Below are positions 1,752-22,169 of a stretch of DNA of 64,000 nt, piece after piece. The translations under genes and the position numbers were made by a program. The DNA comes from Cryobacterium glaciale (GTDB lineage: Bacteria > Actinomycetota > Actinomycetes > Actinomycetales > Microbacteriaceae): assembly GCF_004402535.1 (NCBI RefSeq), contig NZ_SOEY01000008.1:62001-126000 (forward strand), written 5' to 3'. The notes under the pieces were generated by a model. That model made no database searches. It had not been told where the DNA came from and saw only the letters and a list, made by a program, of their open reading frames with translations. How positions within the stretch are numbered: the stretch's first letter is position 1; every line of letters begins with the position of its first letter.

Positions 1752-3516
<1,765 letters not shown>

Positions 3517-5410: not shown

Positions 5411-6403
5411 ATGACAACCGGATTCGACACACGAGAACAGCCCACCATAACAACCATGGCCCACCTGACCGTGCACGTTTTCGGCAACCTGACCATTCGA
5501 CGCGGGCCGGTCGTGCTGCACGCCCACCAGCTGGGCGGTCCCAAACCCCGTCAGATTCTCGAGATTCTGCTTGTGCATCTCGGGCAGCCGGTTTCCAAGG
5601 ACCGCCTGATCGAACTTCTCTGGGGTGCCAGCGCCCCGGTCGAAGCTTTGCCCACCCTCGAAAGCTATGTGAGCGTGCTGCGCCGCCACCTGCAGCCCGG
5701 CGCGGGAAAATTCGGCCCACTCCAGACCACGACCGGCGGTTACGTCCTCGACCGCGACCTGGTCGAGGTCGACCTCGACCAGTTCGATGTCCTGCTGCAA
5801 CGCGCCCAGAAGACCATTCCTGGCCTCGCCTACCCCTTGCTGCTGCGCGCCCTCGACCTCGCCAATGCTCCGCTGCTCGGCGACGAACTCGTGCCGGCCT
5901 GGGCGTCAGATGCGCGCGACCTGCACGCCGCACGACTCACCGGTGCCCGCATTCTCGCCTCGGAGACCGCCGCGGCGTTGCACCGCATGGATGATGCCCT
6001 CGAGTTGGCGAATCTGGCGCTGGCTGATGAACCGCTGAACGAACGAGCCTGGACGGCCCTAGTGCTCGGACTCGAAGCGAGCGGGCGCAACGCCGAGGGC
6101 CTGCAGGCCTTCGACCGGTGTCGCCACGCTATGCAGAACGAGTTGGGCTGCGCTCCTGGCCCGATTCTGCGGGCGGCCCAGCTGCGGCTGCTGCGCGCGA
6201 CGGCCGACGGCGACGGCGAGCTGGCCAACGTGCTCTCGGCCCTGCTCATGTTGCACGAGCAACTCCGCCCGGCGCCCGCGACCGGGCCGGTTTCCCGGCC
6301 TGCCGCCACTACTTCTCCCCGACCAGAGCCGGTCGCGGATTCCCTCCGGGAGGCTACTGATGTTGTCACGTCATTTTTGCGACGCGCCGTCGCTCGCGCT
6401 TGA
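5411..6403 (+). CDS. SARP/AfsR-type transcriptional regulator with BTAD domain
   Basis: A 330-residue protein. Residues about 17-105 form the OmpR-like winged helix typical of SARP regulators (LGGPKPRQILEILLVHLGQPVSKDRLIELLW). Residues about 110-255 form the bacterial transcriptional activation domain (VEVDLDQFDVLLQRA, then ASGRNAEGLQAFDRCRHAMQNELG). The Pro-rich tail carries no ATPase or TPR domain. The ATG at 5411 has GGAGG five bases upstream and is preferred over a GTG at 5399. It opens the accessory region and lies just ahead of a two-component system, so it may activate the oxidase genes; this is positional inference only. Confidence 0.85.
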   Translation: MTTGFDTREQPTITTMAHLTVHVFGNLTIRRGPVVLHAHQLGGPKPRQILEILLVHLGQPVSKDRLIELLWGASAPVEALPTLESYVSVLRRHLQPGAGKFGPLQTTTGGYVLDRDLVEVDLDQFDVLLQRAQKTIPGLAYPLLLRALDLANAPLLGDELVPAWASDARDLHAARLTGARILASETAAALHRMDDALELANLALADEPLNERAWTALVLGLEASGRNAEGLQAFDRCRHAMQNELGCAPGPILRAAQLRLLRATADGDGELANVLSALLMLHEQLRPAPATGPVSRPAATTSPRPEPVADSLREATDVVTSFLRRAVARA

Positions 6404-6562
6404 GCCGGCAACTCGCCGGCCCACATGCCTACCATATGGGGGGCAAAAGAAACAGTACTCGACAAAAACTCATATTGTACTGAAACTGGTGTCGCCAACC
6501 GGAACAGTGCCGTGCTGTCCGTCAACGTCGAGGCTTGGGAACGGGCAGAGAGGTCACCGCAA

Positions 6563-7288
6563 ATGACCGCGCAGATGTCCCCTCGCGAACCCAGCGTGCA
6601 GGGCACAACAGCGACCGCGTCTTTGCCCCAGTCCACGACCGCACAGATTCGCATTCTCATCGTCGACGACCACACCACTTTTGCCGAGCTGCTCACCGGT
6701 TCCCTCAATCGTGAATCCGACCTCTGCAGCGTCGGCTCAGCCAATAGCGTGGCCAGTGGCATCACCGCATGCTTGGCACTGGTCCCCGACGTCGTCGTCA
6801 TGGACTACCACCTGCCCGACGGCAGCGGCCTCGTCGCGGCCACGGCCATCCTTGCCCGCGCGCCACACACCCGCATCGTCATTCTCACCGGGGACCCGGC
6901 GCTGGAAGCCCTCGAACAGGCCGCCGCTATCGGTGTCTGCGCCTTCCTGCCCAAGGACGGCTCCCTCGCGACGGTGCTCGACACCCTGCGGCACGCGCGC
7001 ATCGGCGGTTTCATCGTGCATCCCTCACTCGTGAGTCTGCTGAGCGCACGGCGTCGGCAGCACAGCGAAGACATCCCGTTTCCCGACCTGACGAAACGTG
7101 AGCTCGCTGTGCTCCGGCTCATGGGCGAGGGCTCCGACGTGCGGGCCAACGCCAAGGTTCTCGGCATTTCCGAGAACACCTGTCGCGGCTATGTCAAGGC
7201 CATCCTCGGCAAGCTCGGCGCTCATTCGCAGCTGGAGGCCGTCGTGATCGCGACCCGACTCGGTCTGGTGCCGGCCCAGCATGTCTAA
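6563..7288 (+). CDS. NarL/LuxR-family response regulator
   Basis: A 241-residue protein with a receiver domain at about 30-150 (ILIVDDHTTFAELL, phosphoacceptor Asp81 in VVMDYHLPDGSG) and a C-terminal LuxR HTH (LTKRELAVLRLMGEG, SENTCRGYVKAILGKLG). The start at 6563 is chosen because GAGAGG lies nine bases upstream. The frame stays open back to 6425, but that 46-residue extension is not receiver-like and has no ribosome-binding site. Its last eight bases overlap the histidine kinase gene, so the two are co-translated partners. Confidence 0.92.
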   Translation: MTAQMSPREPSVQGTTATASLPQSTTAQIRILIVDDHTTFAELLTGSLNRESDLCSVGSANSVASGITACLALVPDVVVMDYHLPDGSGLVAATAILARAPHTRIVILTGDPALEALEQAAAIGVCAFLPKDGSLATVLDTLRHARIGGFIVHPSLVSLLSARRRQHSEDIPFPDLTKRELAVLRLMGEGSDVRANAKVLGISENTCRGYVKAILGKLGAHSQLEAVVIATRLGLVPAQHV

Positions 7289-8636
7289 GTGGGCACCAGC
7301 GCAGCCTCGAGCCAGCAGCAGCGACCGCGCCCGGTCGACAGAACGCTCCGAGGTTCGCGCCGCGGTGAGTCGATTTCTCGCGGTGGGCATATTCGCGATG
7401 GTTTTCGTGGCTGTACCGGCCGCCCTCTGGGTGCGTGAACTCTCCGAGCGTAACGCCATGGACAATGCCATCCAGCACGCCCAACGCCTTGCCGACTACT
7501 CCGTCGGGCCTATCCTTTCCGATGCCGTCCTCGCGGGTGACCCCGGCGCGACCCGGCGGCTGGATGAGCGGTTGGCCCCCCGCATCTCCGATGGATCGAT
7601 TGTGCGCGTCAAGGTGTGGGATCCCGCAGGCCGCATTGTGTACTCCGACCTTCCGGAGTTGATCGGCCAGGAATTCACACTTCCGACCTGGGCGCCCGAG
7701 CTGCTCGCCGACGGTAAGGGGCGAGCAACCCTGGGGCTGCATAAGGACCCCGGCGACGAAAACGAGACCGAGGCCGGCGAGCTGGTCGAGGTCTACGTGC
7801 GCGCCTCATCGGCGAGCGGTGACCCCCTCATCTTCGAGGCCTACTTCAACGACGACGCGGTCCGCGACGAACAGAATGCTCTCGTAGTCGGCCTCATCCC
7901 CGCGTTCCTGCTGTCCCTCGGTGCCTTGCAGCTGGCCCAGCTGTTTCCGGCCGTACAACTGGCGCGGCGCATCCAGGGCCACCAATCGACCAAGCGCCAA
8001 CTCCTGCAACACGCCATCGACGCGTCCGACCTGGAGCGCCAACGCATCGCCCGCGACCTGCACGACGACGTCATCCAGGATCTTGCCGGGCTGTCGTATG
8101 CCCTCGAGGCCGAAGAGCGGCACTCGACGCCGGAGAACCGTGCACTGTTCAGCCAGGCCAAAGCCATCCTGCAGAAAAACGTGCAAACCCTGCGGGCTAT
8201 GACCACTGCGCTGTATCCCCCCGACCTCGAAGAGCTCGGCCTGCCGGCCGCGCTGACCCGCCTGACCGCACCGCTGCTCGAGCACGGCATCGAAGTCAAG
8301 CTTCACATTCCGGCCAGCTGCGACATCGACCGCGACCGCGCCGCCATGTTCTACCGAGTAGCTCGCGAGGTGCTCACCAACACCATGAAGCATGCTCACG
8401 CGGGCGTTCTTGAACTCACCCTCATGCAGGACGACGACCGGACCATCCTGCTCATCCACGACAATGGCTGCGGATTTGATATCTCTGCGGGGGCCCCCGA
8501 CAATCACCTCGGCCTGCGCATCATGCGCGACACCATCCAGGTCGCCGGGGGCTCGCTCGAGGTGCGCTCCTGGATGGGCGGCGGCACCTCGGTCATGGCC
8601 ACTCTCGAGCGGGTTGCTCCCGCTCGAGTGCGCTAG
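7281..8636 (+). CDS. NarL-type sensor histidine kinase
   Basis: A 451-residue membrane kinase. Transmembrane helices lie at about 30-50 and 196-220 and bracket a ~140-residue extracytoplasmic sensor region. The HisKA_3 dimerisation/phosphoacceptor segment is ERQRIARDLHDDVIQDLAG with His261. The HATPase domain follows at about 350-445 (TNTMKHAH N-box, LLIHDNGCGFD G1, HLGLRIMRDTI). It phosphorylates the response regulator encoded immediately upstream. The extracytoplasmic domain is not a family I recognise, so the signal is unknown. Given the neighbours, an extracellular redox or metal cue is possible but unproven. Confidence 0.92.
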   Translation: MSKWAPAQPRASSSDRARSTERSEVRAAVSRFLAVGIFAMVFVAVPAALWVRELSERNAMDNAIQHAQRLADYSVGPILSDAVLAGDPGATRRLDERLAPRISDGSIVRVKVWDPAGRIVYSDLPELIGQEFTLPTWAPELLADGKGRATLGLHKDPGDENETEAGELVEVYVRASSASGDPLIFEAYFNDDAVRDEQNALVVGLIPAFLLSLGALQLAQLFPAVQLARRIQGHQSTKRQLLQHAIDASDLERQRIARDLHDDVIQDLAGLSYALEAEERHSTPENRALFSQAKAILQKNVQTLRAMTTALYPPDLEELGLPAALTRLTAPLLEHGIEVKLHIPASCDIDRDRAAMFYRVAREVLTNTMKHAHAGVLELTLMQDDDRTILLIHDNGCGFDISAGAPDNHLGLRIMRDTIQVAGGSLEVRSWMGGGTSVMATLERVAPARVR

Positions 8637-8735
8637 CCAGAAGACGGCGCCGCCGCGGCGGGAACAGGATCCACGCGGCGAAGGCCACGGTCACGCCCAG
8701 CACCGCCGCGAGGCCAATCGCGTAGACCGGGAATC
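8637..8735 (-). pseudogene. Remnant of a membrane-protein C-terminus
   Basis: On the minus strand, in a frame different from the oxidase pseudogene, these bases encode a hydrophobic helix followed by PPRRRRLLAS. This is a typical last transmembrane segment with a positive cytoplasmic tail. No start or upstream domain remains. The tail abuts the truncated multicopper oxidase, as if a deletion had fused the 5' part of one gene to the 3' end of another. Confidence 0.35.
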
Positions 8736-9419
8736 TGCAACGACCTCGAAGCGCATGATCTTATTGGTGTTCACAAAGTTGACGTTGTTCTTGTTGCTCA
8801 GATTCTTCAGTTCGATCTTCTGCCCCACCCGATACTTGCGAAAGTCGATCAGAATCTCGTACCGCTCGGCGGTGCCGTGGCGCCAGGAAGCAACCGGCTG
8901 CACGATCGGAACCATGCCACCATCGGTCGCGACGATATAGACAGGGTCGCCGGTCGACAGGGTCGGGCGATAGGAGCGGGAGATCGAGGCGACCAGCACG
9001 CGAAAGCGGTAGATACGCGGCTTGACCTTCATAGTCGGCCAGGGAACACCGTTGACCAGGATGATGTCGCCGTAGAGGCTACTGTGCAGCCGGTCGTTGT
9101 ATCCAAGCGATCCGTCGGCGTTGAACATGGCGTCGGAGATCATCAGCGGTACATCGAACTGGGCCTGGCCGAGTTTTTGGGTCAGCGCGTACTTGGCGAA
9201 CGGGCGGTCGGGGTCACCGTCATCGAAGCCGGTCTGGTACGGGGCGAGCACGGGTGGGCGGCGAAAGACGCCGGCATCGGGCACCGGCATATTTGCGGGA
9301 GCTAGCAGGCTTTGGGTGAGCAGTGGCACGGTCGGAACGACATTGTCGTTGCCCTCCATGCCGGCCAGTCCGAGCGCTCCGAAGGCGCCGAGCTGGAGGA
9401 CTTCCCTGCGTGATGTCAT
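8691..9419 (-). pseudogene. Multicopper oxidase gene with internal and C-terminal deletions
   Basis: The product starts like the intact oxidase encoded at 12361 (Tat-type MTSRREVLQLGAFGA, then SLLAPANMPVP and GVFRRPP). After LTQKLGQ it jumps to FDVPLMISDAMF, skipping about 130 residues that hold the HLHG and WYHDHNH copper ligands. It follows the paralogue to about VADS, then runs 12 unrelated residues to a stop, losing the C-terminal HPVHIH and HCHNLVH motifs. No copper ligand remains, so it cannot be an oxidase. In the intact gene two similar short sequences (CAGGGCAAGTTC and CAGGGCGAGTTC) sit exactly at the internal deletion ends, which suggests recombination between short repeats. Confidence 0.85.
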
Positions 9420-9464
9420 GACCTCTCCTCAAGGCTTTGTGCGTGTGTGGTGGTGCTGGTGGGA

Positions 9465-9496
9465 CCGGCCGGCGACTGGATCCAGTCGCCGGCCGG
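9465..9496 (-). terminator. Perfect 32-bp palindrome after the FN3/Ig-like gene
   Basis: Arms 9465-9480 (CCGGCCGGCGACTGGA) and 9481-9496 are exact reverse complements, giving a 16-bp stem with a GGATCC centre. It lies 22 bases past the stop of the minus-strand gene ending at 9518 and before the oxidase pseudogene. No clear T tract follows. A related hairpin follows the peroxidase gene at 16225-16256, so it is likely a terminator or an RNA-stability/processing element. Confidence 0.7.
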
Positions 9497-9517
9497 GTTA
9501 AGCGGATCAGGTAGCTC

Positions 9518-11890
9518 TTAGAGCAGGGCTCCCGTCGTGAACGTCCAGGTGCTCGTCACCAGGGGGTTTCCGATCAGATCTCGAACGCTCGTGTTGCCAC
9601 CGATGATGGTCACCCGGTACTGCACGTTCGAGGTCAGGGTTACCCCGGGGTTGATTGTCAGCACATTGGTGGTGGCGTTGAACGCCGCCGCCGATGCGAC
9701 TACCGCTCCGGTGGAGACCCGGGTGATCACAACAGTGCTCGCGCTGACTCCGATGATGTCTTCACTGAAGAGCGCAGTCACGTTGGCGTTCCGGCGTACC
9801 CCGGTGGCTCCCGCGGCGGGAGTCCTCGTAGTGATCGTCGGAGCCGGACCGGTGATGAACGACCAGGTGCTGTCGGCCATCGTGTTGCCGGCCACGTCAC
9901 GGATGCCCGAGAGGGTGGCCGTATAGGTGCGGTCGGTGAGCAGCGTCACACTCGGGTTCAGCGTCGCGACTCGCGTCGTGGCGTTGTACGACACCACTGA
10001 GGCAACCACCAGCGTGCCGCGCCGCAGCACAAACGTCGTGCCGCTAACCCCGGTGACCGGCTCACTGAACGTTGCCGTCAGGTTGCCGGTCGTGCTGACC
10101 GAACGAGCACCGGAGGCCGGCGTGCGTGCGATCACCGTGGGGAGCACGAACTCCGTGCGTGGTGTGACAACCACCGACTTGGCCGACACCGCGCCGAATG
10201 TCGTCCCTGTGACTGCGGTCACATCGAACCTGACCGCGGTGCCGTTGGTGAGCCCTGACACGGTCGCCAAGCGCAACGTCGGCCCGACCGTCGTCGTGCC
10301 CAGCACCGTGGTGCCAGTCCCGCTGAACCGCTGAATTCGGTACCCGGTGATTGCCGATGTCGCCGCGTTAGCTGGCGCCGTCCATGGGATCGTGGCTGAG
10401 GCGTTTCCGGCCGTAACGGTCCCGATCGTAGGGGCACCTGGTACCGTGACGGGGACAGCAGGGGTGACCGTGTTGGAGGCAGCCGAAGGCAAGCTGGGGC
10501 CGATAATGTTCACCGCGGTCACCGTAAAGGTGTAGGGCGTGCCGTTAGCGAGTCCGCTGATCACGGCGCTTCCTGCGGTACCAGAAACCAGGGGGATGGT
10601 TCTGACCACAACGCCTCCAGTGCTGGCCGTGACAGTGAAGCTGTCAACCACGCCCGCAGGTCTGGTCCAGTTCACCGTCGCTGAAGTGTTCCCAGCCGTT
10701 GCGGTGCCAATCGTTGGCGCGCCGGGGGCTGTGGTCGGCAGCGGGGACGGCGTTATGGGACCGCCCGTGCCCACGGAACCCGGTCCAGCGGTGCTGGTGG
10801 CGTTCACGTGAATGGTGTATGCGGTGCCGTTGGTTAGGCCCGTGATGGGCGCCGAGAGGGCAGCGGCCCCGACGGTTCGGCGGAAGATGGCGGCGTTGGG
10901 GTCACCGGCGGTTTGTACCTCCACCACGTAGCCCGTCACCGGGGAACCGCCAGGGATGGTGGTCGCCGCGTCCCAGGTAGCGGTGAGGGAGGCGTCCCCG
11001 GGAATCCCGCTGACGTTGGCAGGAGCGTTGGGTGGAGTACTGCTCGGACCCTGCGGGCAGCCGCCCATCCCGGGGCCGCCGGTCAGGCCGAACTCAGCGA
11101 TTGTCACCCCGAGCCGGTTGCCCGCCAGGTCGGTGCCCATCCAAGACATCGCGCGCTTCTCGCCCGCAGCCGCAATGTCTGCGCTGCTGGCCAGGTCGAA
11201 GTTATAAGTCGCGGTGAATGTGGTTGCGGTGAACTCCAGACTTGAGGAGTAACCGCCGTTGGCGGCGGGCGTGAGAGGTCCGGGGAGAGCGCGCACATCC
11301 CGCTTGCCAACGTCGGTCGAGACCAGGAGGGGCTCGATGATCCGCTGCTCCATCTGGCCAGGAACTGCAGCCGGTCCCCCGGGAGCGTTTAGAGTGCCGT
11401 TGACGACGACCTGAGTTGTGCCGGGAGTGTGGGTGGAACCTGTGACTGTGGGGCTTTGTATCACGGCCGAGTCGGCGCTGACGCCGTTGAACGCCACCGT
11501 GACTTCATCACCTGGCAGGATGTCCGGCGTCACGTTGGGGGCACCCGCACCGGTGCCCCAGCAGACCCCACCCGGGTGGTTGGCCTCGAGCGCTGGAGAG
11601 CCGGCGGAGACGAGTCCCTCAGCGCGTCCGGTAACAACGCCGCCCCGGTCAACCGTGATTGTGGCGAGTTGGCCGACCCTGTCCTGGTAGCCGTCGATCG
11701 ACACGAAGTCGCGGTTGGGGAAGATGGTGATGCCGTTTGGGAAGGCTGGAGGTGTCGCAGCGTAAGCCGGAGCAGCCAGGGGCAGCAAGGCGATTGCCAG
11801 GATGCCTGCGATCGCCGTACCGGCTCGGGTGCGCCCCCGGCGGTATTTGGTGGGACTAGTCCCATCCATATTTGACCGTGTTTCCATCAT
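9518..11890 (-). CDS. Secreted FN3 / bacterial Ig-like multidomain protein
   Basis: A 790-residue exported protein. The signal peptide has a basic stretch and a hydrophobic core ending in APAYAA at about residue 45. Residues about 46-280 form an N-terminal domain I do not recognise. Three FN3 modules span about 283-577 (TGLTNGTAYTIHVNA, SGLANGTPYTFTVTAVN and similar). Two Big_5-like Ig modules span about 580-788 (LTATFSEPVTGVSG, VTALFSEDIIGVSA). The ATG at 11890 has GGAG six bases upstream. The last ~620 bp nearly match the 3' end of the peroxidase gene. No LPXTG motif or transmembrane anchor is seen, so it is probably released or held by its Ig domains. A structural or adhesive partner role for the oxidases is inference. 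Confidence 0.8.
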   Translation of the reverse strand: MMETRSNMDGTSPTKYRRGRTRAGTAIAGILAIALLPLAAPAYAATPPAFPNGITIFPNRDFVSIDGYQDRVGQLATITVDRGGVVTGRAEGLVSAGSPALEANHPGGVCWGTGAGAPNVTPDILPGDEVTVAFNGVSADSAVIQSPTVTGSTHTPGTTQVVVNGTLNAPGGPAAVPGQMEQRIIEPLLVSTDVGKRDVRALPGPLTPAANGGYSSSLEFTATTFTATYNFDLASSADIAAAGEKRAMSWMGTDLAGNRLGVTIAEFGLTGGPGMGGCPQGPSSTPPNAPANVSGIPGDASLTATWDAATTIPGGSPVTGYVVEVQTAGDPNAAIFRRTVGAAALSAPITGLTNGTAYTIHVNATSTAGPGSVGTGGPITPSPLPTTAPGAPTIGTATAGNTSATVNWTRPAGVVDSFTVTASTGGVVVRTIPLVSGTAGSAVISGLANGTPYTFTVTAVNIIGPSLPSAASNTVTPAVPVTVPGAPTIGTVTAGNASATIPWTAPANAATSAITGYRIQRFSGTGTTVLGTTTVGPTLRLATVSGLTNGTAVRFDVTAVTGTTFGAVSAKSVVVTPRTEFVLPTVIARTPASGARSVSTTGNLTATFSEPVTGVSGTTFVLRRGTLVVASVVSYNATTRVATLNPSVTLLTDRTYTATLSGIRDVAGNTMADSTWSFITGPAPTITTRTPAAGATGVRRNANVTALFSEDIIGVSASTVVITRVSTGAVVASAAAFNATTNVLTINPGVTLTSNVQYRVTIIGGNTSVRDLIGNPLVTSTWTFTTGALL
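9553..10170 (-). repeat. Copy 1 of a ~620-bp near-identical 3' module (two Ig-like domains)
   Basis: This block aligns base for base with 16313-16930 at a constant offset of 6760 bp, with about 20 differences seen by eye. Long stretches (for example 9601-9768 and 9771-9991) are identical. Similarity weakens abruptly upstream of 10170, inside the preceding FN3 module, but continues more weakly downstream through the stop codon into the hairpin. Confidence 0.9.
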
Positions 11891-11953
11891 GATGCGCTCC
11901 AAACTAGGCCGCCTGAGGCAGCGATCAGCAAGGTCCTGACATTCCTAGGCCCG

Positions 11954-11975: not shown

Positions 11976-12016
11976 TTGACATCTTCCTGACCCAACCTTT
12001 GGAAAAACTTGGGCGG

Positions 12017-12229
12017 CCATTGGCGGCTCACAACGTGCTCGCGCACGATCTGCGGTTCGCAGTCGACCCGACCGGGCCGGCCGATGCTGTCGCGCGGGAA
12101 GGCATCCTCTCGGAAGCCCTCGGCAATTGCAACACGACCGTGGGTGCCGACACGCTCGAGGAGAGCTACCTGGGCGCGCTGATCAGTGATGATCTGCAAT
12201 CGGCTCTGGTCGCGGAAAGAAGTGGTCGC
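12017..12229 (+). pseudogene. Fragment of a paralogue of the lipoprotein encoded at 14054
   Basis: Frame +2 from about 12029 encodes HNVLAHDLRFAV, then AREGILSEALGN and LGALISDDLQSAL. These align in order with VAEVLVHDLRFAV, AREGILSDALGN and TGPLLSDELIQSV of the intact lipoprotein. The signal peptide, lipobox and acidic tail are absent, and the sequence becomes unrelated after about 12220. The rest of the 11891-12360 gap holds the hairpin at 11954 and the oxidase ribosome-binding site. Confidence 0.75.
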
Positions 12230-12360
12230 CCCGGCGGCAGCGCAACGGGCCAGTTCCCCTGCGCCTGCACGGCACACCATCCTCGCTCACAAGGTTTCCA
12301 AAAGGCCGCCACGGCATGCTTCATCATGAACTCATTTCGACGCACCACTCTGGAGTGATT

Positions 12361-14052: not shown

Positions 14053-14053
14053 C

Positions 14054-14992: not shown

Positions 14993-15353
14993 TTCCGGCC
15001 CCGATGCCGGTGAGAACAGCGGCCTCGGCAGCCAGGTCGATTCCGTGAGCGGCAGCAGCAGCTCCGGCAACGGCAACGGAGGCAACGATGACTAGCGCCG
15101 GGGATGGTGCCAGCCGGGTGCTGCCAAATGGTTCCGAGAATCGCCGACGGACAAATGCTGTTAATTGGTCATCTTGGTAGCGTTGGCACCAGCCTGCGGC
15201 TTAGCCGGGCTATCGACTCAGATGAGTCGGTAGCCCGTTACGCGTACCGGCTTGAGGCGCCCTGTCCCGCACTGGGTTCGCAGGTCTTCCACGTAGACAA
15301 TTATCTTGGTGACCGGCCACATTTTTGTGGATGTTCATGGTCACCCTCGATGG
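14993..15353. other. Gap between lipoprotein and Rieske genes
   Basis: Bases 14993-15095 carry an out-of-frame Ser/Gly/Asn-rich continuation of the lipoprotein tail. From 15096 to 15353 I see no credible gene, RNA or strong hairpin. The only long reading frame there has no ribosome-binding site or recognisable sequence. Confidence 0.5.
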
Positions 15354-15795
15354 TTAGGGACCGGCGAGCACGACGCCGTTGGTGACGCGCACCGGAATCT
15401 TTTTCAGCGGCGAGGGCGCGGGACCGTCAATAACCTCGCCAGTTGCCCCGTTGAAGCGTGACTGATGGCACGGGCAATCGAATTCGCCGCCCCCGGGTTT
15501 GACGACCCAACCCTGGTGCGTGCAGATGGCGCTAAAGGCAATGACGCTGCCGTCGGTCGGCTGTGAAAGCAGAAATCGGCTTCCCGTCCAGGGCGGCCGA
15601 AATTAAGCCGCCGACCAGGATGTCGGCAAGTTTGGCAACCTCTTGGGGCGCACTCCCGCCCGCGGACGTCGTCGCCGGGCCACCAGCCCCCACTCCGGCG
15701 GAGGATTCAGCCGAGCAGCCGGCAAGTGCAGCAGCGGTGCCCGCGCTCCCGATCAGGATAATGGAGCGGCGGGAGAGATCGGTGCTCGGTGTCAT
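15354..15795 (-). pseudogene. Rieske [2Fe-2S] Tat-lipoprotein gene with a single frameshift
   Basis: From the ATG at 15795 the product has a twin-arginine leader with lipobox (DLSRRSIILIGSAG, then LAGC). It reads to DGKPI, then leaves frame at the AAA run 15573-15575. Removing one base restores LLSQPTDGSVIAFSAICTHQG, then FDCPCHQSRFNGATG and a stop at 15354. The Rieske ligand pattern C-x-H and C-x2-H is intact in the restored frame. The protein would be an exported, lipid-anchored electron carrier of about 146 residues, in keeping with nearby oxidases. The lesion could be real or a homopolymer sequencing error. Confidence 0.75.
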
Positions 15796-16224
15796 GGTGC
15801 TCCTCGATTTCGGGTTCGGTTAGTCAGTAGATTCACACTGCTCATAACAACAAGACGGATCATATGGCCGGTAGCGGCATTGTTACGCGGAGACGTGCAA
15901 ATACGGCTTGGTCCTGCTCCTGGGTGGAGGAGCTGAACCAAACCGTATCTTTCGCTCGTAGCCGTCGGGTAGATCTCGTCGGTGGCTTATTGGACGCGGA
16001 TCGTGGCACCGGCCCTCGCGCCGCCGAGTTGGGACTCTGCACTCACGGTCTGTCCGGCCCTGCCCACGAGGGCCGAGGTGGTCCTCACGTTAACGCCGAC
16101 TGCAAATGGGGCCACTAACTGTTTCCTACGATGCCCTATCGACGGTGAGCTGGCCCCGAGTATTTCCCTGCGTGATCTCGTTTCCCTCTTGAAGGTTTTG
16201 TGCTGTTCTGGCGAGGTGGGAGAA
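15796..16224. other. Degenerate gap with a trace of a multicopper oxidase start
   Basis: No intact gene is visible. On the minus strand, bases about 16155-16200 resemble the region around the oxidase pseudogene start at 9400-9440: both read TTCCCTGCGTGAT followed by a TC-rich stretch and AAGG-TTTGTG. The trace encodes a Tat-like SRREIL but lacks the ATG and anything oxidase-like after it. Confidence 0.45.
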
Positions 16225-16256
16225 CCGGCCGACAACTGAATTCAGTCGCCGGCCGG
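16225..16256 (-). terminator. Hairpin after the peroxidase gene, related to the one at 9465
   Basis: Arms 16225-16240 and 16241-16256 correspond position by position to the 9465-9496 palindrome. The centre is GAATTC instead of GGATCC, a compensated base-pair change. The two other differences (16232 and 16234) become G-U pairs in the minus-strand RNA, so the stem is kept in the transcript of the peroxidase gene. The hairpin lies 22 bases past its stop. Confidence 0.7.
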
Positions 16257-16277
16257 GTGAAGCGGATCAGGTGTTTC

Positions 16278-19200
16278 TTAGAGCACGGTGCCGGTCGTGA
16301 AGGTCCACGTACTCGTCACCAGGGGGTTTCCGATCAGATCTCGAACGCTCGTGTTGCCACCGATGATGGTCACCCGGTACTGCACGTTCGAGGTCAGGGT
16401 TACCCCGGGGTTGATTGTCAGCACATTGGTGGTGGCGTTGAACGCCGCCGCCGATGCGACTACCGCTCCGGTGGAGACCCGGGTGATCACAACAGTGCTC
16501 GCGCTGACTCCGATGATGTCTTCACTGAAGGTCGCAGTCACGTTGGCGTTCCGGCGTACCCCGGTGGCTCCCGCGGCGGGAGTCCTCGTAGTGATCGTCG
16601 GAGCCGGACCGGTGATGAACGACCAGGTGCTGTCGGCCATCGTGTTGCCGGCCACGTCACGGATGCCCGAGAGGGTGGCCGTATAGGTGCGGTCGGTGAG
16701 CAGCGTCACACTCGGGTTCAGCGTCGCGACTCGCGTCGTGGCGTTGTACGAGACCACGGCGGCGATCACCAGCGTGCCGCGCCGCAGCACAAACGTCGTG
16801 CCGCTAACCCCGGTGACCGGCTCACTGAACGTTGCCGTCAGGTTGCCGGTCTGGCTGACCGAGCGAGCACCGGAGGCCGGCGTGCGGGCGATCACCGTGG
16901 GGAGCACGAATTCCGTGCGCGGTGTGGCAACCACCGAACGAGCGGACGCCGCTCCGGTGCCGACCGCGTTGATCGCGGCGACATCGAAGGTGTACCCGGT
17001 TCCGTTCGTGAGCGACCCGATCACCGCGCTGGTGACGTTAGCCACCGTCGTGGTGCCCGTGGCCGTCGCGCTCGCTCCGACAAAGGTGCGAACCAGGTAG
17101 CCCGTGATCGGCGCCTGGTTGGCCACCGGTGCGGGGGCCGTCCAGTTGACGGTCACCGATGCGTCACCAGCGACCAAGGTTCCGATCGTCGGAGCGCCAG
17201 CGACCACCTGCACGACCGGTGCGGTCGGGGTGACCACTACCGATCGGGCCGAGGCCGCTCCGGTGCCGACCGCGTTGATCGCGGCGACATCGAAGGAGTA
17301 CCCGGTTCCGTTGGTCAGCACCGTGATCGTCACGGATGACCCGGGGGCGACGTTCGAGGTGCGGAACACCGTAGTGCCCGTGCCCTCGTAAGTGCGAACG
17401 CGGTAGCCCGTGATCGGTGCCTGGTTGGCCACCGGCGCGGGAGCCGTCCAGTTGACGGTCACCTGAGCGTTACCAGCGACCGGGGTACCGATCGTCGGAG
17501 CGCCAGCCACCACCTGCACCACCGGTGCCGACGGAGTCACCGCGTTGGACGAAGCCGAGAATGCGCTCGTTCCTTCCGCGTTGGTCGCCGATACCTGGAA
17601 GGTGTAGCTGGAGCCGTTGGTCAGTCCGGTGACAACCAGGCTGAAAGCGGTTCCGGGTGCGGTTCGCAGTGCGCCCACCTGGGCTCCGGCCGAGTCGAGC
17701 ACCCGCACCGAGAAGCTGGTGGGGATGCCGGTCAGTGAAGCTACCCAGTCGACGGTCGCCTGACCGTCGCCGGCAACTGCAGCGACGGCGGTCGGGGTTC
17801 CCGGGGCCACGGTGTCGCGGAACTGCAGGCGTTCGATGTTGCGCAGGGTGTCCGTACCGTCGGTACCGCGGTTGTCGAGCACCGTGGTGGTCGATCCAGC
17901 CGAGCCGAGCGTGCCGTTGCCACCGGTCGTGGTGACCACGTAGTCGCTGGTCAGTCCGGAGAACTGCGCGGTGTCGATACCACCCGTGCCGTAGAGGATC
18001 TCGCGGACGGCAACGATGTCACCGGGGTCGACCGTGCCGGCAAAGACAGCTTCCTGCAGCGTCGGCCCGGTGAGTCCACCGGCGCCGTCAGAAAGGTACT
18101 GGCTGGCCATGGCACTCTGGTTCGTGCCGTTGATGCTGGCACTGCCGATCTCCGTCGCCGGGTCGTTCGGGTTGGTCCGAACGCTCAGGCGAAGACTGAG
18201 GTACGCGTCACCGTCGATGATGTCGTCGGCTCCTCGTCCCTCGATCAGGTCGCTGCCGCCGCCGCCGAGGAGCACGTTGCCGGCACCCCAGACGTTGGGG
18301 CCGGTCAGGATCGGGCAGTCACCCTGTGCTGACAGTGCGACAACGGATGCCAGCGTGGTTGTGAATTCCGGAATCAGCGCGTCGAAGCCCGCAATGCGGT
18401 CTACTCCGGCCTGGTCCACCACGTCACAGCCGATGAAACCGCCGCCGCCGACGGCGCTGGGAACAACGTCGTCACCACGGAGTACGTCATTCAGCTTCCA
18501 GCCGGAGAGTGCCTCGACTTCGTTGAACTTGTCGCGCACACCGACCTGCAGAATGTCGAGCGGCGCGATCGGCAGCGCCAGATCGGCGTCCTGCGCCTGG
18601 GGGTCACCCTGGCCGGTTGACCAGTCGTAGCCGGAACCACCGGCGTTCTTTTCGACTCCCGGACCGGCAACGCCAATGTCGTCGCCACCCTCCATGTCGT
18701 AGTCGTCGTCGCCGCCCTGGCCGATCATGAAGTCGTGACCGGGCTTCTGTGAGTCGTCCAGGAAGAACAGGTTGCTGCTGTCTCCAATCATGAGGTCGGG
18801 CTGGTTGCCGCCCTCTTCCCAGTCGTCGCCACCGTCACCGAAACCAGCATCGAGGCTTTCACCGAGAATCATGAAGTCATCGCCGGCGCCACCGAAGGTC
18901 TCGTTGGCGTTGGCTCCACCGTTCGTGAAGTCCTTGCCTTCGCCACCCATGATGATGTCGAGTCCGGGGCCGGCATCGATCGCGTCGTTGCCCGGTCCGC
19001 CCTTGGGGACATCGTCTCCGGCGAGGTCGGTGATGATGTCGTCGCCTTCGCCACCAAGAGCCACGTCGGCTCCACCACCACCCTCGATGACGTCGTTGCC
19101 GAGGCCACCCCAGTAGGTGTCGTTGTCGTTGCCGCCGAACATCCGGTCCACATTGGCGGTGCCGTTGTAGACAGCCTGCCCGTTGATGCCGGAAGGGTCG

Positions 19201-22169
19201 ACCGCGTTGCGGGCACGGTACTTGATCGTGCCGTCGGGCATGCGAATCAGCAACGCTGTCTCATCACACTCGGACTGCGGATCGTTGGCGACGATGTTCC
19301 CCGAAGCCGCGAACCCTGCGACGGTTCCAGCCAGGTTCTTCAACTCGAACTTGCAATCGGCCGTGGCGAAGGGGTCGGCCTTCAGGGTCTGCGCATTGGT
19401 GTTGCGCATCATGAGCTCGGCAAAGGAGTTGCCCTCCAGCTGGGTGCGGAGGTTCATGCCGGGCGTGCGGGCGAGGTAATACAGCCGGTCCCCGTTTTGC
19501 AGGTCGGTCATCTGGTTCTCGAACACGTAGTTGAACGTTGTGCCGAGCAAGCCGCCGAACGGGGTGGTCATCTCCGCGAGACCGCCGACCCAGAGATCGA
19601 CGTCGTCGAGACCGGTGATCGAGCGCGTGCCCGTGTTGGCCCATGCTCCCGTGCTGTTCATGAAGTCCATGGCACCGTCCGGAGACACTTCTCCGGCGAG
19701 GGCGTCAGGGCTCACGATCAGTCGCGCAGCGTCACGCTTACCATCGAGCGTGGTCGCGCTCGTGATAGTTGGGTACTGACCGTAGGCGGCCACGAAGTTG
19801 ATGAGCGATTCCGGGTGTTTGAGGTTCTCACCGAAGTCGATCCAGTTCGTGTACGGCTTGAGCGCCCCGTCGTTGGTCTTGTTGAACAGTTCGCGACGGA
19901 AGACGTTCAACCGCGGCACGCCTTCCGAACGCGCACGGGTCATGTTGATCGATGCCAGGTCGAGCGGCAGACCCAGCAGGTTGTTGCGCAGGGTGTCGGT
20001 GACGAACTCGTCGAGTTCGTTGCCGACCTGGTCACTCATTCCCATGATGACGCTGCCAGCGGCCTCTTCCGAGGTCAGCTGACCATCGGGTCCACCGTCG
20101 GTGTACGCCAGCGGGTTGAGGAACCCCTCGAGCAGGGAGATGTCGTTCAAGCTGCCCCGAATGTCGTCGCTCGTGCCAAAGACGCCATCAGCACCCGGCT
20201 TGCCCTCGTTGGTACGCGAGATCGTCTCGGTCAACATGGAGTGTCCGAAGCGGTACACGGCGTGAGCGAACTCCGCCTTGACCGCTGGGTTGATCTCGGT
20301 CTGGGTGAACGCGAACGGTTCGAACGGATTGATACCGGGCTGCACCTTGCGTGCGAACTCTTCGAACACGAGGTGCTGATATTCCATCTCAGTGACGAAT
20401 CGAGCAGCCTGGAACAGACGCTCGCCATTCCAGCCGGCGGCACCGCTGGCCAGCTTCCACTCGGCCAGGGCGGCAATGCCCTTGGTGGAGGTGTCGTTGG
20501 TCAGGGTGTTCTCAATGTCGACGATGAGGCGGTCGTGCTCGGAGTGGAACACCTGGTGAATGGCGGTCAGGCCGATGTTCTCGTTGACACGACCGTCTCC
20601 GGCGATGAAGTGAGCATTGAGCATCTCATCGTCGTAGGTTCCGGCCGGCTGGCTGGCGAAGTCAGCGGATGCCGTGTTGTCACCGTCCGGGCTCAGTCCG
20701 GACTTCGGTTCCGCGTTGTGCGCGATATCGGTCAGGAACGGAGTGTTGAAGTACAGCACGTTGCTCGGAACGGGCACGGGGTTGGCGGTGTCGCCCTCGA
20801 CCAGGCCGGTCGCGGTGGCGTACTGCGGCATTCCGCGCAGCGGTCCCGGGATGAACTTGCCGTAGGCATCCGCTGCGAGCATCGGGACGTTGAGCACATC
20901 CTTGTCCGCCAGCAGAAGTCCCAGCATGTTCGCGGCCTGAGCCTTGGTGGTGGCCCAGGTGGCCATGCCGCCAGCGGTCGGTCCGGCCGGGCCACCGAGG
21001 AGCTTGCCGGTGGCTACCGGTCGTCCGGCGTTCAGCACGTACTCGCGCAGGAACACCTGGTGCGACGGGTGTGAGGTATAGGTCTGGCTCTGATCGACCC
21101 AGGGTGAGTCCGTGTTGAGGGCGTCCTGAATGTCATCAGCGCTCTCATCGGCCGGGGTGGCCGGGTTGTCGCCGACGACGCCGTCAGCGCCGGGCTGGTT
21201 CTGCCCGCGGGTCAACACCATGAAGGCCTCGGCGGCAGGAACCTCGTCGCCATTGCCGGCGATCCCGTCGGGACCGGAGACGCGCAGCGGGTCATCCGCT
21301 TTGAGGGGCACGAAGACCGTGCCGCCGCCCTTGACCGTCTGATCGATGCCGTGGTCGAAGAACTGGCCGAACAGGGTGAACAGGGAGTTGTACGGCGGCG
21401 ACAGGCCGACGTCGGTCGTCACGTTCGGCATGAACAGTGTCTCATTGGACGGGATGCAGCCGGCGGGAACGCCGAACGGCACGGTCGGGCTCGGGTCGGT
21501 CGTGCAGGCTACAACGCCCTCGTTGCCCTGGGTGCGTACCGGGTTGCCGGCGGCGGCGATGGCGGCCGGGTTGGTCGACGTTTGATCGACAATCAGGTTG
21601 CTGACGGTGCGTGGCTCAGAGTCGAAGACGAGGCCCTTTTTCTGGGCGTAGGTGGTCGGGTTCGGTGGTCCAAAGCCAGCGGGAGTGTTATCCGCTGAGG
21701 AGAAGACCGGCGTCGCGAGGCGCGGGAAGACCTGGTCGGCGGCGCCGAACTGGTCCTGGCCGGGCTGCAGGTTGTTGCAGGAACCGTCGACCGTGCGCAG
21801 TCCGAGGGAGAGCAGGGGGCTGGCTATCTGGTTGGGGCCGGTTCCGACCAGGGCGCCGCAGGGGCCGGTGGCCGAGGTGGTGTTGGTCACGTGCGCTTCA
21901 GCGATCTTGATTTGCTTGAGGATGTAAGCGAGGTCGGACGCCGTGACGGTGAACCCCTGGCCGACCGGGGCGACCGCGGCCTGCGCCGGGAGCGCGGCCG
22001 ACAGGCCGAGCCCGGCATAGAGCACGGCAGCCATGCCGGCGGCGAGAATGCGCATGGGCTTTCCGAAGACCCTCCGTGGTCTTTCACTGTCCTGGGAAGG
22101 TGGACTACCTCGCATTCCAGTGGTGTTTCTCATGCTGCGAACAATTCCTTTACCTTCGAACCTGCTCAT
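16278..22169 (-). CDS. Secreted animal-type heme peroxidase with RTX, FN3 and Ig-like domains
   Basis: A 1963-residue exported protein; a start at 22133 would also fit. The signal peptide lies at about 38-66 (MAAVLYAGLGLSAALPAQAA). The animal heme peroxidase domain spans about 250-960, with distal His273 in QFFDHGID, the LTAIHQVFHSEHDRL helix near 540 and proximal His643 in YRFGHSML. RTX-type calcium-binding nonapeptides follow at about 1010-1140 (GGLGNDVIEGGGGADV, GGEGDDIITD), with a shorter set near 1310. FN3 modules occupy about 1440-1746 and two Big_5-like Ig modules about 1748-1960. RTX-linked peroxidases of this kind include bacterial Mn(II) oxidases. The gene is divergent from the TetR gene. 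The peroxidase call is firm; the substrate is open. Confidence 0.9.
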   Translation of the reverse strand: MSRFEGKGIVRSMRNTTGMRGSPPSQDSERPRRVFGKPMRILAAGMAAVLYAGLGLSAALPAQAAVAPVGQGFTVTASDLAYILKQIKIAEAHVTNTTSATGPCGALVGTGPNQIASPLLSLGLRTVDGSCNNLQPGQDQFGAADQVFPRLATPVFSSADNTPAGFGPPNPTTYAQKKGLVFDSEPRTVSNLIVDQTSTNPAAIAAAGNPVRTQGNEGVVACTTDPSPTVPFGVPAGCIPSNETLFMPNVTTDVGLSPPYNSLFTLFGQFFDHGIDQTVKGGGTVFVPLKADDPLRVSGPDGIAGNGDEVPAAEAFMVLTRGQNQPGADGVVGDNPATPADESADDIQDALNTDSPWVDQSQTYTSHPSHQVFLREYVLNAGRPVATGKLLGGPAGPTAGGMATWATTKAQAANMLGLLLADKDVLNVPMLAADAYGKFIPGPLRGMPQYATATGLVEGDTANPVPVPSNVLYFNTPFLTDIAHNAEPKSGLSPDGDNTASADFASQPAGTYDDEMLNAHFIAGDGRVNENIGLTAIHQVFHSEHDRLIVDIENTLTNDTSTKGIAALAEWKLASGAAGWNGERLFQAARFVTEMEYQHLVFEEFARKVQPGINPFEPFAFTQTEINPAVKAEFAHAVYRFGHSMLTETISRTNEGKPGADGVFGTSDDIRGSLNDISLLEGFLNPLAYTDGGPDGQLTSEEAAGSVIMGMSDQVGNELDEFVTDTLRNNLLGLPLDLASINMTRARSEGVPRLNVFRRELFNKTNDGALKPYTNWIDFGENLKHPESLINFVAAYGQYPTITSATTLDGKRDAARLIVSPDALAGEVSPDGAMDFMNSTGAWANTGTRSITGLDDVDLWVGGLAEMTTPFGGLLGTTFNYVFENQMTDLQNGDRLYYLARTPGMNLRTQLEGNSFAELMMRNTNAQTLKADPFATADCKFELKNLAGTVAGFAASGNIVANDPQSECDETALLIRMPDGTIKYRARNAVDPSGINGQAVYNGTANVDRMFGGNDNDTYWGGLGNDVIEGGGGADVALGGEGDDIITDLAGDDVPKGGPGNDAIDAGPGLDIIMGGEGKDFTNGGANANETFGGAGDDFMILGESLDAGFGDGGDDWEEGGNQPDLMIGDSSNLFFLDDSQKPGHDFMIGQGGDDDYDMEGGDDIGVAGPGVEKNAGGSGYDWSTGQGDPQAQDADLALPIAPLDILQVGVRDKFNEVEALSGWKLNDVLRGDDVVPSAVGGGGFIGCDVVDQAGVDRIAGFDALIPEFTTTLASVVALSAQGDCPILTGPNVWGAGNVLLGGGGSDLIEGRGADDIIDGDAYLSLRLSVRTNPNDPATEIGSASINGTNQSAMASQYLSDGAGGLTGPTLQEAVFAGTVDPGDIVAVREILYGTGGIDTAQFSGLTSDYVVTTTGGNGTLGSAGSTTTVLDNRGTDGTDTLRNIERLQFRDTVAPGTPTAVAAVAGDGQATVDWVASLTGIPTSFSVRVLDSAGAQVGALRTAPGTAFSLVVTGLTNGSSYTFQVSATNAEGTSAFSASSNAVTPSAPVVQVVAGAPTIGTPVAGNAQVTVNWTAPAPVANQAPITGYRVRTYEGTGTTVFRTSNVAPGSSVTITVLTNGTGYSFDVAAINAVGTGAASARSVVVTPTAPVVQVVAGAPTIGTLVAGDASVTVNWTAPAPVANQAPITGYLVRTFVGASATATGTTTVANVTSAVIGSLTNGTGYTFDVAAINAVGTGAASARSVVATPRTEFVLPTVIARTPASGARSVSQTGNLTATFSEPVTGVSGTTFVLRRGTLVIAAVVSYNATTRVATLNPSVTLLTDRTYTATLSGIRDVAGNTMADSTWSFITGPAPTITTRTPAAGATGVRRNANVTATFSEDIIGVSASTVVITRVSTGAVVASAAAFNATTNVLTINPGVTLTSNVQYRVTIIGGNTSVRDLIGNPLVTSTWTFTTGTVL
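16313..16930 (-). repeat. Copy 2 of the ~620-bp near-identical 3' module
   Basis: This is the 3' end of the peroxidase gene and is nearly identical to 9553-10170. Differences cluster at a few points, such as 16531-16532 and 16752-16766. Most of the block is unbroken identity including third codon positions, which indicates recent duplication or gene conversion rather than conserved protein function alone. Confidence 0.9.
16931..17530 (-). repeat. Tandem ~300-bp FN3-module repeats inside the peroxidase gene
   Basis: Two successive FN3 modules are close copies with a period near 303 bp. The segment starting at 16951 (GCCGCTCCGGTGCCGACCGC) recurs at 17254 and the match continues for more than 60 bases with few changes. 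This marks local expansion of the stalk region. Confidence 0.8.

What the first reader, a model, noticed from the sequence alone, without database searches (positions are those of the whole stretch)
5411..22169. Candidate extracellular oxidation island: SARP + two-component system + multicopper oxidase + RTX heme peroxidase
One region holds a complete Tat-exported multicopper oxidase, a secreted animal-type heme peroxidase with RTX repeats, a lipoprotein co-transcribed with the oxidase, a Rieske lipoprotein, a large FN3/Ig-like secreted protein and three regulators. RTX-linked heme peroxidases and multicopper oxidases are the two enzyme classes known to oxidise Mn(II) in bacteria. Finding both side by side, tied by shared Ig-like C-terminal modules, suggests a combined secreted oxidation system. 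Mn(II), phenolics or another substrate is inference.
Basis: partly seen in the sequence, partly recalled or inferred. Interest (0 to 1): 0.85.

Follow-up and report, generated by a model that had tools for sequence, protein, structure and literature searches.

The report
Co-regulated secreted peroxidase and copper oxidase
A cold-loving soil bacterium carries a large secreted heme enzyme and an exported copper enzyme side by side; relatives tend to keep the two together and put the same DNA switch in front of both, which suggests one machine for oxidising something outside the cell, most likely manganese.

Summary
The window is from Cryobacterium. The observation largely holds: SARP, response regulator, kinase, an intact Tat-type multicopper oxidase (MCO), a coupled lipoprotein, and a 1,963-aa RTX animal-heme peroxidase (POX) with intact active-site residues. 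Corrections: the Rieske gene is frameshifted and not conserved; 8691-9419 is a deleted MCO remnant; in the window the Ig-like modules join POX to the FN3 protein, not to the MCO.

POX and MCO occur in the same 22 of 57 Cryobacterium genomes and together in 36 of 150 Arthrobacter genomes (42 POX, 37 MCO); in a family-wide sample the fit is looser (6 both, 3 POX only, 3 MCO only). They are adjacent in Cryobacterium, Arthrobacter and Actinoplanes, in different orders. A shared promoter element (AAGGTTT-N4-AAGG, 11-bp direct repeat) precedes POX, separately transcribed MCOs (14 of 16) and FN3 genes (5 of 5), but not MCOs inside a POX operon (0 of 15). It also precedes an unlinked MCO of this genome, 63% identical to the protein taken to be BoxA, a reported Mn(II) oxidase of Arthrobacter sp. 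QXT-31, a strain with a POX-MCO pair.

Best reading: one extracellular oxidation regulon, probably SARP-driven; Mn(II) the likeliest, unproven substrate.

The parts
5399..6403 (+). SARP-type regulator (Trans_reg_C + BTAD); candidate binder of the shared 11-bp direct-repeat element
   Evidence: Pfam BTAD 1e-14, Trans_reg_C 5e-8; same place in L046, L047, L048 and in another genus, L045
6425..7288 (+). response regulator (receiver + LuxR HTH)
   Evidence: Pfam; conserved beside SARP and HK
7281..8636 (+). sensor histidine kinase (HisKA_3 + HATPase_c), overlapping the RR gene
   Evidence: Pfam; conserved
8691..9419 (-). remnant of the ancestral POX-linked MCO (MCO-A): first cupredoxin domain and C-terminal part deleted; pseudogene
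   Evidence: no Pfam hit; aligns in pieces to the intact MCO of L047 with two gaps
9518..11902 (-). secreted protein: ~250-aa N-terminal domain without Pfam match, three fn3, two Big_5
   Evidence: N-terminal domain near POX in L064, L075, L076, L140
11996..12014 (-). copy of the shared promoter element ahead of the FN3 gene (GCCCAAGTTTTTCCAAAGG)
   Evidence: PWM score 25.6, p 0.0017, about -108; sequence
12031..12196 (+). decayed second copy of the lipoprotein gene
   Evidence: blastn to lipoprotein genes of L046, L047, L086
12288..12307 (+). shared promoter element ahead of the MCO gene (CACAAGGTTTCCAAAAGGCC), -73
   Evidence: exact 13-mer match to the POX promoter; PWM p 0.0012
12361..14052 (+). 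multicopper oxidase MCO-B, bilirubin-oxidase/CotA-like, Tat-type signal, all copper ligands
   Evidence: part of a 2.9-kb unit colinear (82%) with a stand-alone locus of C. gelidum, L053
14054..14992 (+). lipoprotein with tandem ferredoxin-like core and C-terminal His-x-His tail; gene starts 1 nt after the MCO stop
   Evidence: (His tail read in 12 of 12 rows, window included)
15357..15795 (-). Rieske-type lipoprotein gene, frameshifted in this assembly; not part of the conserved module
16158..16220 (-). remnant of the MCO-A start directly downstream of POX (trace of the former POX-MCO operon)
   Evidence: 16158-16400 is 88% identical to L047 6895-7139, which spans the MCO start
16278..22169 (-). 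POX: secreted RTX animal-heme peroxidase, 1,963 aa, MopA-like catalytic region
22219..22238 (-). shared promoter element ahead of POX (CACAAGGTTTCCATAAGGCC), -69
22300..23049 (+). TetR regulator; divergent neighbour that marks the conserved edge of the locus
   Evidence: same place in L046-L048

Best explanation
The region is one locus of a conserved, patchily distributed actinobacterial regulon for extracellular oxidation. A two-component system and a SARP regulator (binding to the shared AAGGTTT-N4-AAGG direct repeat is inferred) switch on together (i) POX, a secreted Ca-binding RTX animal-heme peroxidase that would make one-electron oxidations, (ii) one or more Tat-exported bilirubin-oxidase-like MCOs that draw electrons from a substrate and reduce O2, (iii) a membrane-anchored lipoprotein with a His-x-His tail that probably hands copper or substrate metal to the MCO, and (iv) an FN3/Ig-like matrix protein. 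Most likely substrate: Mn(II), giving Mn(III/IV), each enzyme covering conditions in which the other fails. Shown here: gene content, conservation together, shared promoter element, intact active-site motifs. Inferred: SARP binding, copper role of the lipoprotein, secretion, Mn(II). In this strain the ancestral POX-MCO operon has been broken and an MCO-B/lipoprotein unit, carrying its own copy of the element, sits in its place.
For: Same 22 of 57 Cryobacterium genomes carry POX and MCO; 16 of the 22 within 10 kb. Arthrobacter: 42 POX, 37 MCO, 36 both, of 150. Leaving out genomes with a pair under 20 kb, 18 of 24 POX-positive against 1 of 108 POX-negative Arthrobacter have the MCO, and 6 of 6 against 0 of 35 in Cryobacterium. 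Among 80 named POX loci, 16 have a strong (at least 450-bit summed) MCO hit in the held flanks, 10 of those 16 with the lipoprotein; order is POX-MCO-LPP in Cryobacterium and several Arthrobacter, MCO-LPP-POX in Actinoplanes. Promoter element: exact 13-mer at -69 of POX and -73 of MCO; with a matrix made from 29 POX promoters, separate MCO promoters 14 of 16 at p<=0.0125, operon-internal MCOs 0 of 15, FN3 genes 5 of 5, SARP genes 0 of 10, control genes 1 of 10 at the same cut (Fisher for the first two 5e-7). The unlinked MCO of this genome lies on the side of P0271 (BoxA) in the tree, 63% identical to it, and has the element. QXT-31 has POX and such an MCO divergently adjacent, and a CopD-CtaG gene behind an element copy about 17 kb away.
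Against: No activity, expression or binding data. In the family-wide sample of 299 genomes the pairing is looser: of 9 with the MCO and 9 with the long POX, 6 have both, 3 (genus g64) only POX, and 3 only the MCO (G040 and G187 with just a short PF03098 protein, G071 with none). Six of 42 POX-positive Arthrobacter genomes have no such MCO, one of 37 the reverse. The window's own MCO is on the other side of the tree from BoxA. L049-L052 show no MCO or SARP in the 20 kb fetched, and the element was missing in the three of them scored. The element failed at 2 of 16 separate MCO promoters and, among POX promoters outside the training set, at 9 of 23 (p<=0.0125) or 8 of 23 (p<0.05), four of them Actinoplanes POX genes downstream of MCO-LPP; of three further POX promoters seen only, L090 and L121 did not match. 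One control gene (HK, L075) scored. Genomes and promoters are related, so all p-values are too small, and the 0.0125 cut was set after seeing the scores. The broken operon may mean that the locus is decaying in this strain.
Confidence: 0.53

Rival explanations
1. Same co-regulated secreted module, but the substrates are organic: phenolics, lignin or humic material. The MCO acts as a laccase and POX as a phenol-oxidising or cross-linking peroxidase.
For: Best PDB matches of the MCO are bilirubin oxidase and CotA, broad-substrate enzymes (recalled); many hosts named are genera known from soil (recalled). Nothing in the sequence fixes the substrate.
Against: POX is about 50% identical over 99% of the 871-aa catalytic region to Pseudomonas-type RTX peroxidases of about 3,400 aa, Metapseudomonas resinovorans among them, the species in which Mop peroxidases are reported to be involved in Mn(II) oxidation (PMC9765421, passages). 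The MCO is kin to the BoxA protein.
Confidence: 0.23
2. POX is a haloperoxidase (lactoperoxidase-like) for killing competitors, and the MCO serves copper or iron homeostasis; they travel together only as a general surface-stress regulon.
For: Asp, Glu and His heme-site residues as in lactoperoxidase are invariant; a CopD-CtaG copper gene has an element copy in QXT-31; PDB matches include lactoperoxidase and CueO. Three of 9 family genomes with the MCO lack the long POX.
Against: In the two genera studied a bilirubin-oxidase-like MCO almost never occurs without POX (1 of 37 Arthrobacter, 0 of 22 Cryobacterium), odd for plain copper homeostasis.
Confidence: 0.14
3. No joint function: the genes hitchhike on one mobile or frequently lost island.
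For: Patchy distribution in Cryobacterium (22 of 57); POX and MCO distances correlate (Mantel r 0.60 over 21 of 22 loci tried); rearranged, partly decayed locus in the window.
Against: Co-occurrence persists where the genes are not close; the shared element also precedes MCOs elsewhere in the genome (L053, L054).
Confidence: 0.08
4. The promoter element is bound by the LuxR-type response regulator, or is an alternative-sigma promoter, rather than a SARP site (a variant of the best explanation; its confidence is not part of the same sum).
For: RR and HK genes are adjacent as well; a conserved A-N3-T follows the repeats like a -10 box.
Against: Two heptamer-like copies 11 bp apart with a -10-like box 7 bases beyond the second is close to the arrangement recalled for SARP targets; recalled LuxR-type sites are inverted repeats.
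Confidence: 0.35

Closest known systems
MopA (Mn-oxidising peroxidase-cyclooxygenase, 'long peroxicin'; Erythrobacter SD-21, Aurantimonas, P. putida GB-1)
   Same: animal-heme peroxidase domain followed by RTX repeats; heme-linking Asp and Glu conserved; giant protein
   Different: Here actinobacterial, with one peroxidase domain, fn3 and Big_5 C-terminus, and tied to an MCO, a lipoprotein and a SARP/two-component system. Mn(II) activity untested. No bona fide MopA sequence was compared; among named homologues Metapseudomonas resinovorans is at 50%.
BoxA, bilirubin-oxidase-type MCO of Arthrobacter sp. QXT-31 (P0271, identified by name and contig)
   Same: same MCO family, twin-arginine N-terminus, same copper motifs; 52% identical to the window MCO, 63% to the unlinked MCO of this genome
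   Different: The window MCO is in the other clade, the one that pairs with the lipoprotein. The position of boxA relative to POX in QXT-31 was not found; its paralogue (75%) is the POX neighbour.
MnxG / McoA / MopA set of Pseudomonas putida GB-1 with MnxS1/S2/MnxR
   Same: both enzyme classes in one organism, a two-component system controlling the MCOs
   Different: The three genes bear distant locus tags (PputGB1_2447, 2665, 3353); MopA has shown no activity in the wild type or in mutants lacking both MCOs (PMC11930936, passages). Relation of MnxG/McoA to the MCO here was not compared.
CotA / bilirubin oxidase (PDB 1gsk, 2xll)
   Same: three-cupredoxin MCO with the same copper motifs (sequence matches; Met at the type-1 copper position recalled)
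   Different: twin-arginine N-terminus, no spore, regulon partner of a peroxidase

Membership tests
MopA-type RTX heme peroxidase | animal-heme peroxidase domain | tested here: met
   PF03098 E 1e-53
MopA-type RTX heme peroxidase | heme-linking Asp/Glu and distal/proximal His conserved | tested here: met
   Q269, D272, H273, R527, E530, H643 invariant in 9 of 9 aligned POX, window included; R527, E530 and H643 align with the PDB lactoperoxidase 8s6c. Assignment of the distal residues to myelo/lactoperoxidase is recalled.
MopA-type RTX heme peroxidase | hemolysin-type Ca-binding repeats | tested here: met
   PF00353
MopA-type RTX heme peroxidase | PERCAL calcium motifs | not tested
   motif definition not at hand; named in PMC6247904
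MopA-type RTX heme peroxidase | oxidises Mn(II) | not testable with these tools
   needs an assay
Multicopper oxidase, bilirubin-oxidase/CotA type | MCO domains with all four copper motifs incl. type-1 Cys-His-Met | tested here: met
BoxA clade of MCOs | groups with the protein taken to be BoxA (P0271) in a tree | tested here: not met
   window MCO is on the other side of the one fully supported 7|7 split (100/100, midpoint root, 14 rows, L090 a long branch); the unlinked MCO at C18:327133 (L054) is on the BoxA side
MnxG-type Mn oxidase | sequence match to MnxG | not tested
   no MnxG sequence was compared
SARP-controlled promoter | direct repeats with 11-bp period ahead of a -10 box | tested here: met
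   second repeat degenerate in some Arthrobacter; that this defines SARP targets is recalled
SARP-controlled promoter | bound by the adjacent SARP | not testable with these tools
   needs DNA-binding assay
Rieske lipoprotein as module member | intact reading frame and conservation in relatives | tested here: not met
   frameshifted; no match at E below 0.05 in the other loci scanned
Known fold/function for the lipoprotein | close structural relative of known function | tested here: inconclusive

The most novel reading that the evidence does not exclude
Actinobacteria have their own dedicated Mn(II)-oxidation regulon in which a MopA-like peroxidase and BoxA-like multicopper oxidases, usually studied as alternative Mn oxidases, are switched on together through one conserved SARP-type direct-repeat element, with a His-tailed lipoprotein as metal-delivery partner and a CopD-CtaG copper importer added in some strains.
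Probability: 0.4. Interest if true: 0.82.

Novelty: new variant of a known kind. Interest (0 to 1): 0.66.

Why it matters
Why some Mn oxidisers carry both a heme peroxidase and a multicopper oxidase is unsettled. Here the two are bound by co-occurrence, adjacency and a shared promoter element across actinobacterial families, and the set includes Arthrobacter sp. QXT-31, listed in the literature as the source of a Mn-oxidising bilirubin oxidase. That gives a defined gene set, a predicted regulator and binding site, and natural presence/absence pairs (22 against 35 Cryobacterium genomes, one per species) for testing who oxidises what outside the cell.

Tried and rejected
Rieske as part of the module: rejected (frameshift; no match at E below 0.05 in the other loci scanned). 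CopC fusion to POX: precomputed PF04234 on four of the listed POX (P0022, P0055, P0057, P0059) was checked on two: over cut-off at 27.8 and 31 bits, but on residues 1776-1852 of P0022 and 1595-1673 of P0059, in the Ig-like tail just ahead of the best Big_5 stretch; set aside as a likely Ig-fold cross-match. Tat signal for POX: the twin arginine near its N-terminus is not kept in L046, L047 or L048, so not claimed. Element hit ahead of a dnaA-like ORF (window 58935): the matched letters contain TTATCCACA, a DnaA-box-like string (recalled), so rejected as a regulon member. Fold of the lipoprotein: common ferredoxin-like arrangement, no functional hint. N-terminal domain of the FN3 protein: low-confidence model (mean pLDDT 61.5, 4 sequences), not searched further. 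Element specificity over 2.19 Mb of held loci: 112 hits at score 13 or more: 52 ahead of POX (the 29 training loci included), 9 MCO, 3 FN3, 1 SARP, 7 on the opposite strand near such genes, 40 elsewhere, against 19 in one mononucleotide shuffle; so some hits elsewhere are chance.

Weaker MCO hits (145-192 bits) in eight of the 80 named loci (L076 cut by the locus edge, L120, L121, L123, L128, L133, L134, L136) were not counted as this MCO type.

Literature: searches listed no paper that I recognised as describing this gene set together; only titles, starts of abstracts and some passages were seen, and most subscription papers are not held. Liang et al. 2017 (BoxA) is not held; its content is recalled and seen only as cited in PMC12896264. 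Sequences of MnxG, MoxA and a bona fide MopA were not available, so there is no test of placement among characterised Mn oxidases.

Full report
Identity. The window lies in a 3.7-Mb genome whose nearest named matches are Cryobacterium: the POX catalytic region is 93% identical to that of Cryobacterium sp. Hz9, and the best tblastn segments of C. gelidum, C. ruanii and C. suzukii are at 88-89%.

What is in the region. SARP (5399-6403), response regulator (6425-7288) and histidine kinase (7281-8636) lie on the + strand. POX (16278-22169, -) is a 1,963-aa protein with an animal-heme peroxidase domain, RTX repeats, three fn3 and two Big_5 stretches. In nine aligned sequences, window included, Q269, D272, H273, R527, E530 and H643 are invariant. 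R527, E530 and H643 line up with a solved lactoperoxidase chain; the roles of these residues (heme esters, distal and proximal His, catalytic Arg) are recalled from myelo/lactoperoxidase, and PMC6247904 (abstract, introduction and part 1 of the discussion read) states that the two covalent heme residues of lactoperoxidase are conserved in MopA. The MCO (12361-14052, +) has all copper ligands and is closest in the PDB to bilirubin oxidase and then CotA. The lipoprotein gene starts one base after the MCO stop.

The Rieske gene is broken by a frameshift and had no match at E below 0.05 in the other loci scanned. Between kinase and POX this strain carries debris: an MCO remnant with two deletions at 8691-9419, a lipoprotein-gene remnant at about 12031-12196, and the first codons of an MCO just downstream of POX at 16158-16220. 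In C. suzukii an FN3-protein gene lies between POX and MCO. So the ancestral POX-linked MCO was lost here. The intact MCO and lipoprotein belong to a 2.9-kb unit (12246-15162) colinear at 82% with a stand-alone MCO-lipoprotein locus elsewhere in C. gelidum (L053). How it moved is not known.

Conservation together. In 57 Cryobacterium genomes POX (E<=1e-50) is in 22 and the MCO (E<=1e-60) in 22, the same ones; in 16 of the 22 the two lie within 10 kb. In 150 genomes of the genus of G354, which holds strains named Arthrobacter and Pseudarthrobacter, POX (E<=1e-100) is in 42, MCO in 37, both in 36; 18 have a pair under 20 kb. The six POX-only genomes all carry only the 61-62% POX type. Physical linkage is not the whole reason: among POX-positive genomes without a close pair, 6 of 6 (Cryobacterium) and 18 of 24 (Arthrobacter) still have the MCO, against 0 of 35 and 1 of 108 POX-negative genomes. 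Some Cryobacterium 'unlinked' cases sit at contig ends, and relatedness makes all p-values too small. In the family sample of 299 genomes the fit is looser: PF03098 in any form is in 30, the long form (frames of about 1,900-2,100 aa) in 9 (own genus 4, g64 3, g72 1, g50 1), and the MCO in 9; 6 have both, the three g64 genomes have POX only, and G040, G071 and G187 have the MCO without the long POX. Of the other-genus POX loci, L045 keeps SARP-RR-HK beside POX without an MCO in the 20 kb, and L049-L052 have neither there. In the order sample 15 of 297 genomes have POX at E<=1e-100 (the MCO was not searched in that sample). Of the 80 named loci kept (the best of 502), 16 have a strong MCO hit in the held flanks, 10 of these with the lipoprotein, and 20 have a SARP hit, four of them weak (50-62 bits) (several loci are cut by contig ends). 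Gene order differs between lineages: Actinoplanes has MCO-lipoprotein-POX (L083, L087, L088, L094).

Shared promoter element. A repeat search showed an inverted pair that puts the same sequence in the same orientation ahead of POX and of the MCO: CACAAGGTTTCCA at -69 and -73, the only two matches in 64 kb with up to two mismatches (0.71 expected; 13 of 100 shuffles had two or more, so the count alone is weak; two exact matches at like distances from two genes are the point). With up to two mismatches the 13-mer is ahead of POX in 8 of 9 Cryobacterium loci checked (L086 has 5 mismatches), and exactly ahead of the stand-alone MCO of C. gelidum. The direct-repeat form AAGGTTT-N4-AAGG is kept, with 0-3 mismatches, in the Arthrobacter loci scored, and exactly in an Intrasporangiaceae genome and a Frankiales MAG. 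A matrix from 29 chosen POX promoters (of the 38 scored; left out were L069, L083, L087, L088, L089, L090, L094, L119 and L121) was then tested on other genes against 4,000 random windows. At p<=0.0125: MCO with its own promoter 14 of 16 (misses L087, L090); MCO inside an operon behind POX 0 of 15; FN3 genes 5 of 5 (L076 and L140 nearly identical sites); SARP genes 0 of 10 (L075 at 0.027); control genes 1 of 10 (an HK in L075). POX outside the training set: 14 of 23 at that cut and 15 of 23 at 0.05; the 8 misses are four Actinoplanes (POX is last in the operon; the first gene, the MCO, scores in 3 of 4), L119, and L049-L051. L089, L090 and L121 were not scored with the matrix; L090 and L121 did not match and L089 had 3 mismatches. 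Background windows include real sites, which makes p conservative; the cut was chosen afterwards, gene starts are approximate, and many test loci are close kin of training loci. Seven bases beyond the second heptamer (columns 14-20) begins a hexamer with conserved A and T (columns 29 and 33) that resembles a -10 box. Direct repeats with an 11-bp period just before a -10 box is the recalled layout of SARP targets; binding is inferred.

Link to manganese. Arthrobacter sp. QXT-31 is listed as source of the Mn-oxidising BoxA (ANG58850.1) in a table of PMC12896264 (passages, citing Liang 2017, not held). It has two POX genes. One has an MCO divergently adjacent; around the other no MCO was found within the 40 kb fetched. 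A second QXT-31 MCO named bilirubin oxidase (P0271), taken to be BoxA, is 75% identical to that neighbour; where it lies is unknown. In a tree of 14 MCOs one split has full support on both sides: the lipoprotein-paired MCOs with the window's, against the side of P0271, which holds the other MCO of this genome (L054, C18:327133, 63% to P0271 over 528 aa). That MCO is preceded by the element at -76, with a further strong copy ahead of the small gene before it. POX is about 50% identical over 99% of its catalytic region to RTX peroxidases of about 3,400 aa in Pseudomonas-type genomes including Metapseudomonas resinovorans; Mop peroxidases are reported to be involved in Mn(II) oxidation in P. resinovorans MOB-513 (PMC9765421, passages). 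In P. putida GB-1 both enzyme classes exist, but MopA has shown no activity in the wild type (PMC11930936, passages). In QXT-31 a CopD-CtaG gene has an element copy, which fits copper supply to the MCO. Antarctic Arthrobacter isolates have been reported to oxidise Mn(II) (PMC8533519, passages); no paper in the library held both 'Cryobacterium' and 'manganese oxid'.

The lipoprotein. Twelve sequences, window included, from three families align (30-55% identity to the window protein) with one invariant C-terminal His; reading the rows shows a His-x(1-2)-His tail in all twelve, including the four Actinoplanes proteins, which lack a lipobox Cys. The predicted core (residues about 56-240; pLDDT mostly 75-96, 59 around residues 101-110) is a tandem ferredoxin-like fold with no telling relative. 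Metal delivery is inference from the tail and from pairing with the MCO.

Verdict. A real, conserved, probably co-regulated extracellular oxidation module; the combination and the shared element were not found described in the searches named under Tried and rejected. Joint function about 0.8 likely in my judgement; Mn(II) as main substrate about 0.5.

Noticed in passing
L049-L052 (POX of Microbacteriaceae genera g64 and g50): An insert inside the peroxidase domain, between the parts matching window POX residues ~821 and ~826; in the two proteins scanned (L050, L051) it matches three cell-wall-binding CWB2 (PF04122) repeats.
   Followed up: partly
window 1743-1851 (+): TPP riboswitch just over its gathering score, ahead of ORF 1846-3516.
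   Followed up: no
window ~57305-58810 (-): 502-aa ORF that looks like DnaA by eye (recalled, not scanned), with a DnaA-box-like string upstream; the window may reach the origin region.
   Followed up: no
L154:1465-3411 and L154:612-1292: Divergent pair behind two element-like sites in QXT-31: a CopD-CtaG membrane protein and a 227-aa protein without Pfam match; possible further regulon members.
   Followed up: partly
L077:15735-17714 and L154:14211-16175: 655-660-aa protein family (weak PKD hit) behind strong element copies near POX in Arthrobacter; unknown function.
   Followed up: partly
L054:6376-7002: 209-aa protein without Pfam match ahead of the BoxA-side MCO of this genome, behind an element copy scoring 20.1.
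   Followed up: partly
P0211 (metagenomic protein): An MCO 69% identical to the window's with a Big_5 module at its C-terminus, the module type found on POX.
   Followed up: partly
window 48455-48649 (-): tRNA-Ala/tRNA-Ile pair, an arrangement usual between 16S and 23S genes (recalled), but no rRNA reached Rfam's gathering score in the window.
   Followed up: no
window 9457-9756 and 16217-16516: 300-nt direct repeat (94%) covering the Big_5 ends of the FN3 protein and POX; a possible recombination point for the rearranged locus.
   Followed up: partly
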